From NCBI GenBank assembly GCA_949296365.1, contig CASFPZ010000001.1:62001-126000 (forward strand): a DNA stretch of 64,000 nucleotides, written 5' to 3'. The stretch is from an uncultured Akkermansia sp. Its GTDB lineage: Bacteria > Verrucomicrobiota > Verrucomicrobiia > Verrucomicrobiales > Akkermansiaceae. Positions within the stretch are counted from its first letter, which is position 1; every line of letters starts with the position of its first letter. A program made the position numbers and the translations under genes. Under the pieces are notes generated by a model that did no database searches, was not told the DNA's origin, and worked only from the letters and a program-made list of their open reading frames with translations. Of this stretch, positions 25,110-29,638 are shown in pieces.

Positions 25110-25310
25110 GATCCTCGCCTATTAAGACATGGAAGGAGATGGTGAGATGGAGCCTCTTCTTCACGGTAGATGGAGTCTCTCTGGGGGACGAATTTGGCCT
25201 ATTAGCCTCGTACACCAGGTTCCATGGCAGTGGCTGTGTATTATGCTGTTCTCATTAGCTATTCCATGGAGCTATATGCTCGATCTTGTTGGCATAGATA
25301 GAAAAGTGGT

Positions 25311-25375
25311 ACATTTTGACGCAGGGGGGAGGTGTGACAAAATGTAAGCAAGTGAGTCAAAATGACGCGTTTTGA
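25311..25375. promoter_or_regulatory. Two TTTTGA/TCAAAA dyads upstream of dnaK promoter
   Basis: Dyad 1: ACATTTTG (25311-25318) with CAAAATGT (25338-25345). Dyad 2: TCAAAA (25357-25362) with TTTTGA (25370-25375), spaced by 7 bases. Both use the same TTTTG core, and GACGC occurs next to both. Their distance from the -24/-12 element is what upstream activator sites of sigma-54 promoters have. Function is inferred only. Confidence 0.4.
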
Positions 25376-25488
25376 TGGGTTAGTTTAGTGGTTACGTGTG
25401 CCTTTTTTGTTGAGAGTGGAGAATGGATTTTGTGATAATATACTAATTATCAATCATTTGTTATTATTTGTAAAAATGAGTCGAAAAA

Positions 25489-25505
25489 TTGGCACAGCAT
25501 TTGCA
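25489..25505 (+). promoter_or_regulatory. Sigma-54-type (-24/-12) promoter of dnaK
   Basis: TTGGCAC begins at 25489 and TTGCA ends at 25505. TGGCACA (25490-25496), 4 bases, then TTGC (25501-25504) is an exact spacing match to the consensus TGGCACG-N4-TTGC, with one mismatch. The dnaK ATG lies 78 bases downstream. I saw no other sequence of this form between genes in the window. Confidence 0.6.
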
Positions 25506-25510
25506 GATAG

Positions 25511-27529
<2,019 letters not shown>

Positions 27530-27599
27530 CTCCTTTTTGTCAGGGAATGGGGTTGGCCGTGTGACAAGCTGCCGCCCCGTTCTAGGAAAACAAATGATT

Positions 27600-27654: not shown

Positions 27655-27945
27655 ATGGCTACAATTAAACCATTAGGACAACGCGTTCTGATCAAGCGCA
27701 TCGAAGCTGAAGAAAAGACAGCTGGCGGACTTTACCTTCCTGATACCGCTAAAGAAAAGCCCCAGGAAGCTGAAGTGATTGCCGTTGGTACGGGTGGACG
27801 CGACGATCAGGGTAAGTTGATTGAGTTTACCGTTAAAGTTGGCGATCGCGTGCTCACGTCTCGCTATGGTGGCACGGACGTCAAGATAGACGGGGAAGAT
27901 TATGTAATCATCTCTGAAAATGATATTTTGGGAATCATTGCGTGA
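27655..27945 (+). CDS. groES: Co-chaperonin GroES
   Basis: 96 residues, normal length. Forms the heptameric lid on GroEL. Family pattern: [12 protein letters not shown] near the N-terminus, the mobile-loop region K-T-A-G-G-L-Y-L-P, and [13 protein letters not shown] in the core. groEL follows 49 bases later; together they form the usual groESL operon. No CIRCE inverted repeat was found upstream. Confidence 0.96.

Positions 27946-27982: not shown

Positions 27983-29638
<1,656 letters not shown>

What the first reader, a model, noticed from the sequence alone, without database searches (positions are those of the whole stretch)
25311..25505. dnaK may be under sigma-54 control with upstream activator-type dyads
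TGGCACA-N4-TTGC at 25490-25504 has exact -24/-12 spacing, and two TTTTG-type dyads lie 115-180 bases upstream, the usual place for enhancer-binding-protein sites. Hsp70 genes are normally driven by sigma-32, sigma-70 with HrcA/CIRCE, or related; sigma-54 control of a chaperone would link it to an activator ATPase.
Basis: partly seen in the sequence, partly recalled or inferred. Interest (0 to 1): 0.6.

Follow-up and report, generated by a model that had tools for sequence, protein, structure and literature searches.

The report
Sigma-54 promoter drives Verrucomicrobiota dnaK
In this Verrucomicrobiota-type bacterium, and in almost every relative checked, the gene for the main heat-shock chaperone (DnaK) carries a sigma-54 promoter with upstream activator sites, so the cell probably makes its chaperones through an ATPase-driven activator rather than the usual heat-shock sigma factor or HrcA repressor.

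Summary
TGGCACAGCATTTGCA (25490-25505) is the only perfect sigma-54 -24/-12 site in the 2.67-Mb genome. All 53 dnaK upstream regions retrieved independently of promoter, covering the genus and its order, have TGGCAY-N6-TGC; letter-permuted motifs average 0.04. Across the phylum, 216 of 388 genomes match a combined site-plus-dnaK pattern. Several other lineages carry the site at a fixed -27/-28 from the ATG, which predicts leaderless dnaK mRNA. The "TTTTG dyads" are copies of a 17-bp palindrome, TGNGNCA-N3-TGNCNCA, conserved 60-175 bp upstream of -24. The genome encodes RpoN and exactly one GAFTGA activator, an NtrC/AtoC-type response regulator with a kinase gene beside it, orthologous across the phylum. 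HrcA is absent from all 59 genomes searched. No sigma-70 site is conserved. Sigma-54 chaperone promoters are already mapped in Flavobacterium and predicted in Bacteroidota and Planctomycetota. Verrucomicrobiota, the operator and the activator are the new part. Nothing has been tested at the bench.

The parts
25490..25505 (+). sigma-54 -24/-12 promoter element TGGCACAGCATTTGCA (GG 25491-25492, GC 25503-25504)
   Evidence: Only perfect consensus match in the genome; the equivalent site is in 53/53 dnaK upstream regions of the order; T, G, G, C, A and T, G, C are invariant in 33/33 genus sequences
25307..25323 (.). upstream activator site 1, TGGTACATTTTGACGCA (palindrome TGNGNCA-N3-TGNCNCA, 1 mismatch)
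25333..25349 (.). probable weak activator half-site, TGTGACAAAATGTAAGC (left half perfect, 3 mismatches overall)
   Evidence: position fits the 18-25 bp centre spacing seen in relatives
25353..25369 (.). upstream activator site 2, TGAGTCAAAATGACGCG (1 mismatch)
25448..25460 (+). IHF-like site TATCAATCATTTG between activator sites and promoter (exact WATCAANNNNTTR)
   Evidence: exact sites in 5/33 genus sequences versus 0.35 for permuted patterns; suggestive only
25516..25516 (+). predicted transcription start (12 nt after the C of GC)
   Evidence: inferred from sigma-54 promoter geometry; not mapped
25528..25552 (+). 5'-UTR stem-loop TGTTCTCGTGAGACATGTGAGAACA, starting at about +13 of the predicted transcript
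   Evidence: a stem of different sequence near +9 (median) in all 33 genus leaders, mean z -1.66
25583..27529 (+). dnaK (Hsp70) coding sequence
   Evidence: PF00012, 838 bits; the [14 protein letters not shown] start is shared by relatives
27655..27945 (+). groES, probable second gene of the dnaK-groES-groEL operon
   Evidence: PF00166; synteny conserved, gap 53-125 bp; no terminator found in the gap
27995..29638 (+). groEL, probable third gene of the operon
   Evidence: PF00118; synteny conserved
25410..25439 (+). sigma-70-like TTGAGA-N18-GATAAT with extended TG: possible basal promoter, not conserved

Best explanation
dnaK, and probably groES-groEL behind it, is transcribed by sigma-54 RNA polymerase from the -24/-12 element at 25490-25505. 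An NtrC/AtoC-type response regulator, the only sigma-54 activator in this genome (7-9 kb beyond the window on the same contig, with a PAS histidine kinase gene beside it), binds the TGNGNCA-N3-TGNCNCA palindromes centred 129-175 bp upstream. The DNA is looped, perhaps with IHF help at 25448-25460, and ATP hydrolysis by the activator opens the promoter. Shown by sequence: the promoter motif and its conservation, the palindromes, RpoN, the single activator, the absence of HrcA. Inferred: that this activator binds these palindromes, that the kinase responds to protein-folding or related stress, and that groESL is co-transcribed.
For: Only perfect site in the genome. 53/53 conserved with exact N6 spacing, while other spacings give 0-1 and permuted motifs average 0.04. 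In the genus only the sigma-54 element is strongly conserved in the interval examined, and sigma-70-like sites are at chance. Palindromes 77 versus 0.29 expected, centred 60-175 bp upstream of -24. The combined sigma-54 + palindrome pattern hits 39/59 genus genomes with a control of 0, and 29 of the 30 loci fetched are at dnaK. rpoN present. One GAFTGA activator, orthologous in 58/59 relatives and 213/241 phylum genomes. HrcA absent in 59/59. Combined pattern in 216/388 phylum genomes. 5'-UTR hairpin at a nearly constant offset from the predicted start. Mapped sigma-54 dnaK promoter in Flavobacterium.
Against: No transcription start, RNA or binding data. The window's own palindromes are imperfect (1, 3 and 1 mismatches). 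The activator ortholog also occurs in lineages whose dnaK promoter differs in layout, so presence/absence does not single it out. Palindromes without sigma-54 sites occur at a few other loci in relatives. RpoH was not searched for.
Confidence: 0.87

Rival explanations
1. dnaK has a housekeeping sigma-70 promoter as its main promoter, and sigma-54 only adds a minor or conditional start (as in the tandem sigma-66/sigma-54 promoters of the Chlamydia hrcA-grpE-dnaK operon).
For: TTGAGA-N18-GATAAT with extended -10 at 25410-25439; tandem promoters reported in Chlamydia (PMC8762339); DnaK is usually needed at some level at all times.
Against: Sigma-70-like sites in this interval occur in 3/33 genus sequences versus 3.9 expected. 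Sigma-70 consensus scoring may not fit this phylum, so this is not decisive.
Confidence: 0.3
2. The promoter is sigma-54 dependent, but the palindromes are bound by another regulator (a repressor or a second activator), not by the NtrC/AtoC-type protein.
For: No binding data. In Bacteroidota, where no clear ortholog of this activator was found, a related palindrome TGNCA-N3-TGNCA still occurs upstream of dnaK.
Against: The palindrome lies at enhancer distance, mostly in 1-4 copies spaced about 18-25 or 42-46 bp, and has the 17-bp geometry of NtrC operators (TGCACC-N5-GGTGCA, from my own knowledge). This genome has no other sigma-54 activator.
Confidence: 0.15
3. The sites are coincidental in an AT-rich intergenic region.
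For: About one perfect match per genome of this size is expected by chance; promoter scans of AT-rich DNA give false hits.
Against: Conservation in 53/53 sequences against 0.04 expected, and across 216/388 phylum genomes.
Confidence: 0.01

Closest known systems
Sigma-54 (motif SM4) protein-quality-control promoters of Flavobacterium psychrophilum (PMC9723704)
   Same: dnaK has a -24/-12 sigma-54 promoter, there with a mapped start; other chaperone genes included
   Different: There the regulon is wide (groESL, grpE-dnaJ, htpG, lon, clpB, motility) and the passages read name no activator. Here, in Verrucomicrobiota, dnaK is the only recurrent target found in the genus, with a defined palindrome and a single receiver-type activator
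In silico sigma-54 regulons, aRpoNDB (PMC12316311)
   Same: Predicts chaperones including DnaK, GroEL, GroES, GrpE and DnaJ under sigma-54
   Different: Enrichment of this chaperone cluster is reported for Bacteroidota and Planctomycetota, not Verrucomicrobiota; no activator operator for it in the passages read
Chlamydia hrcA-grpE-dnaK operon, tandem sigma-66/sigma-54 promoters with HrcA/CIRCE (PMC8762339)
   Same: Sigma-54 promoter upstream of a dnaK operon in the wider PVC group; an AtoC-type activator is named there
   Different: Chlamydia keeps HrcA/CIRCE and a sigma-66 promoter; the order studied here has no HrcA
E. coli ibpB and rpoH sigma-54 promoters; Bradyrhizobium groESL3 under NifA (from my own knowledge)
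   Same: Stress or chaperone genes reached by sigma-54
   Different: Accessory promoters or paralogs, not the main dnaK promoter across a phylum

Membership tests
sigma-54-dependent promoter | GG-N10-GC with TGGCAY/TTGCW context | tested here: met
sigma-54-dependent promoter | rpoN gene with all three domains in the genome | tested here: met
sigma-54-dependent promoter | GAFTGA-bearing AAA+ activator in the genome | tested here: met
sigma-54-dependent promoter | transcription start about 12 nt after GC, lost without rpoN | not testable with these tools
   no RNA data; hairpin offset is indirect
NtrC/AtoC-type enhancer control | palindromic activator sites about 80-200 bp upstream | tested here: met
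NtrC/AtoC-type enhancer control | receiver + AAA + Fis-type HTH domains and an adjacent kinase | tested here: met
   below the NCBIfam equivalog cut-offs shown, so not AtoC or NtrC proper
NtrC/AtoC-type enhancer control | the activator binds these palindromes | not testable with these tools
   inferred from its being the only activator
NtrC/AtoC-type enhancer control | IHF bend site between enhancer and promoter | tested here: inconclusive
   exact match in the window, modest enrichment in relatives
HrcA/CIRCE control | hrcA gene | tested here: not met
   0/59 genomes of the order
HrcA/CIRCE control | CIRCE element | tested here: not met
   0 in window with up to 3 mismatches
sigma-32 (RpoH) control | CTTGAA-N13-CCCCATNT site upstream of dnaK | tested here: not met
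   no match near 25583; window count equals chance
sigma-32 (RpoH) control | rpoH gene | not tested

The most novel reading that the evidence does not exclude
Across Verrucomicrobiota, and in related form across the FCB/PVC bacteria, sigma-54 plus a palindrome-binding activator is the ancestral control of Hsp70. In this genus the sigma-54 system with its single activator is retained essentially for dnaK-groESL. In several same-class lineages the same promoter sits at a fixed -27/-28 position so that dnaK mRNA is leaderless.
Probability: 0.5. Interest if true: 0.8.

Novelty: new variant of a known kind. Interest (0 to 1): 0.62.

Why it matters
Textbook bacterial heat-shock control is RpoH or HrcA/CIRCE. 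Here is a sequence-level case that most of a phylum uses sigma-54 with an ATP-driven activator for dnaK, with HrcA missing from the whole order tested. It names the operator and the candidate regulator, so the heat-shock switch of a large, poorly studied group becomes directly testable. It also suggests why small genomes with one activator keep rpoN.

Tried and rejected
Chance: rejected by permutation, spacing and orientation controls. Conserved sigma-70 promoter: not found. CIRCE/HrcA: not found. Sigma-32-like site: not found. Rfam: only a tRNA in the window. I first read the phylum scan as loss of the site in many same-class families; fetching their dnaK loci showed a sigma-54-like site too close to the ATG for my pattern. 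One shared activator for Bacteroidota and Verrucomicrobiota: clear orthologs only in Verrucomicrobiota. Recurrent further targets of the palindrome in the genus: none clear, apart from a lone palindrome roughly 70-100 bp upstream of the kinase-activator operon in two relatives without a sigma-54 site. Laying out the whole genome was not available. Several literature searches found no report on Verrucomicrobiota.

Full report
OBSERVATION. The dnaK gene (25583-27529; PF00012 at 838 bits) is preceded by TGGCACAGCATTTGCA at 25490-25505. With the consensus TGGCACRN4TTGCW this is the only perfect match in the window and the only one in the 2.67-Mb genome, which is 99.6% complete. One-mismatch matches in the genome are moderately above the reversed-pattern control (54 versus 33), so single weak matches mean little. 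The perfect match at dnaK, in the right orientation, 78 nt before the ATG, is what needed testing by conservation.

CONSERVATION. dnaK was retrieved by protein similarity from relatives, without reference to promoter, and upstream DNA was taken for 33 genomes of the genus (the window's own included) and 20 of other families in the order. All 53 have TGGCAY-N6-TGC within 200 bp of the start codon. Two thousand letter-permuted motifs average 0.04 sequences (maximum 8); spacers of 3, 4, 5, 7, 8 or 9 give 0 or 1; the reverse orientation gives 3. In the genus alignment anchored on the site, the invariant columns are T, G, G, C, A and T, G, C; sigma-70-like sites are no commoner than in shuffles, 3 of 33 versus 3.9. 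A pattern joining the sigma-54 site to the dnaK start, with a 36-96 nt gap, is present in 216 of 388 genomes sampled across the phylum; simple base counting predicts fewer than one.

A SECOND LAYOUT. Other families of the same class seemed to lack the site. Their dnaK loci show why. Many have a sigma-54-like element whose start sits at a fixed -27 or -28 from the ATG, which puts the predicted start of transcription at or next to the start codon. I count this layout in 13 of 22 loci, some with weaker matches. The fixed distance predicts leaderless dnaK mRNA. This is an inference from sequence only.

THE DYADS. In the window it lies at 25307-25323, 25333-25349 (weak) and 25353-25369. In the genus there are 77 copies with at most one mismatch in 32 of 33 sequences, against 0.29 for permuted half-sites; in the rest of the order 18 against 0.16, in other families of the class 21 against 0.23, and elsewhere in the phylum 22 against 0.15 (the last set was chosen by its sigma-54 site). 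In the genus, copies are centred 60-175 bp upstream of -24 and spaced mostly 18-25 or 42-46 bp. This is enhancer distance, and the half-site geometry resembles that of NtrC operators (own knowledge). An exact IHF consensus lies at 25448-25460; such sites are moderately enriched in relatives, 5 of 33 exact against 0.35.

THE REGULATOR. The genome has one rpoN with activator-interacting, core-binding and DNA-binding domains. It has one protein with a strong sigma-54 activator domain and a GAFTGA motif; the weaker Pfam hits lack GAFTGA. That protein has receiver, AAA and Fis-type HTH domains, and a PAS histidine kinase gene lies directly upstream. Its nearest NCBIfam models are AtoC and NtrC, below cut-off. 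An ortholog is found in 58 of 59 relatives and in 213 of 241 genomes of the phylum. In the genus, a pattern joining the sigma-54 site with the palindrome is found in 39 of 59 genomes with no hit for the control, and 29 of 30 loci fetched hold dnaK. The palindrome alone occurs at scattered other places; the only recurrent one of note lies upstream of the kinase-activator operon in two relatives, without a sigma-54 site.

OTHER CONTROLS ABSENT. HrcA is found in none of 59 genomes of the order. The window has no CIRCE even with three mismatches, and sigma-32-like matches are at chance with none at dnaK. RpoH was not searched for.

TRANSCRIPT. From the predicted start (25516) the leader is 67 nt. 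It carries a stem-loop (25528-25552) followed by an A-rich stretch. All 33 genus leaders have a stem near +9, of differing sequence, mean z -1.66, while the last 30 nt of the leader score -0.36. This fits a 5' stabilising hairpin rather than a thermosensor over the ribosome site (inference). groES and groEL follow dnaK in the genus with 53-125 bp gaps and no terminator detected in the window, so co-transcription is likely but not shown.

BEYOND THE PHYLUM. Because the scan was cut off and selected by the motif, it gives no frequencies. Bacteroidota upstream regions carry a related palindrome TGNCA-N3-TGNCA, 22 copies in 19 of 35 against 0.10. A clear ortholog of the activator was not found there.

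WHAT IS KNOWN. Sigma-54 promoters with mapped starts exist for dnaK, groESL, grpE-dnaJ, htpG, lon and clpB in Flavobacterium psychrophilum (PMC9723704). A 2025 in silico survey reports the chaperone group enriched among predicted sigma-54 targets in Bacteroidota and Planctomycetota (PMC12316311). Chlamydia has tandem sigma-66/sigma-54 promoters before hrcA-grpE-dnaK (PMC8762339). Searches of the held library found nothing on Verrucomicrobiota; subscription papers are mostly not held. So sigma-54 control of dnaK is not new as an idea. Its breadth in this phylum, the operator, the sole-activator inference and the predicted leaderless layout appear to be new. The taxon names rest on the record titles and on shared sequence features; the window's own genus was not named by any tool.

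VERDICT. Supported at sequence level, confidence 0.87 that the site is the functional promoter under an enhancer-binding activator; binding by the named activator and the inducing signal remain inferred.

Noticed in passing
L326-L329, L332, L333, L336, L337, L339-L341 (same-class families, dnaK loci): Sigma-54-like element at a fixed -27/-28 from the dnaK ATG with no leader left for a Shine-Dalgarno: predicted leaderless dnaK mRNA
   Followed up: partly
window 25528-25552; 33 genus leaders: Stem-loop of changing sequence at a nearly constant position in the dnaK 5' leader, followed by an A-rich unstructured stretch; similar hairpins lie in the dnaK-groES gap of relatives
   Followed up: partly
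L388 and L411, about position 1501: Lone copy of the dnaK-type palindrome upstream of the kinase-activator operon, which may mean autoregulation
   Followed up: no
window 27560-27576: One-mismatch copy of the palindrome (TGTGACAAGCTGCCGCC) in the dnaK-groES gap, one of only six in the window
   Followed up: no
L368 (Marinimicrobia, 0.9 Mb) and L369 (Prevotella): Receiver-less sigma-54 activators of about 410 residues in genomes with a sigma-54 dnaK promoter; the Marinimicrobia genome shows a single activator, a good candidate for the chaperone activator of that group
   Followed up: partly
L228: Contig titled 'Akkermansia sp. isolate RGIG3086' whose dnaK leader closely matches those of the window's own genus; the submitted name is doubtful
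   Followed up: no
G111 and G131 (0.9-Mb genomes of the same class): The activator ortholog is kept in strongly reduced genomes
   Followed up: no
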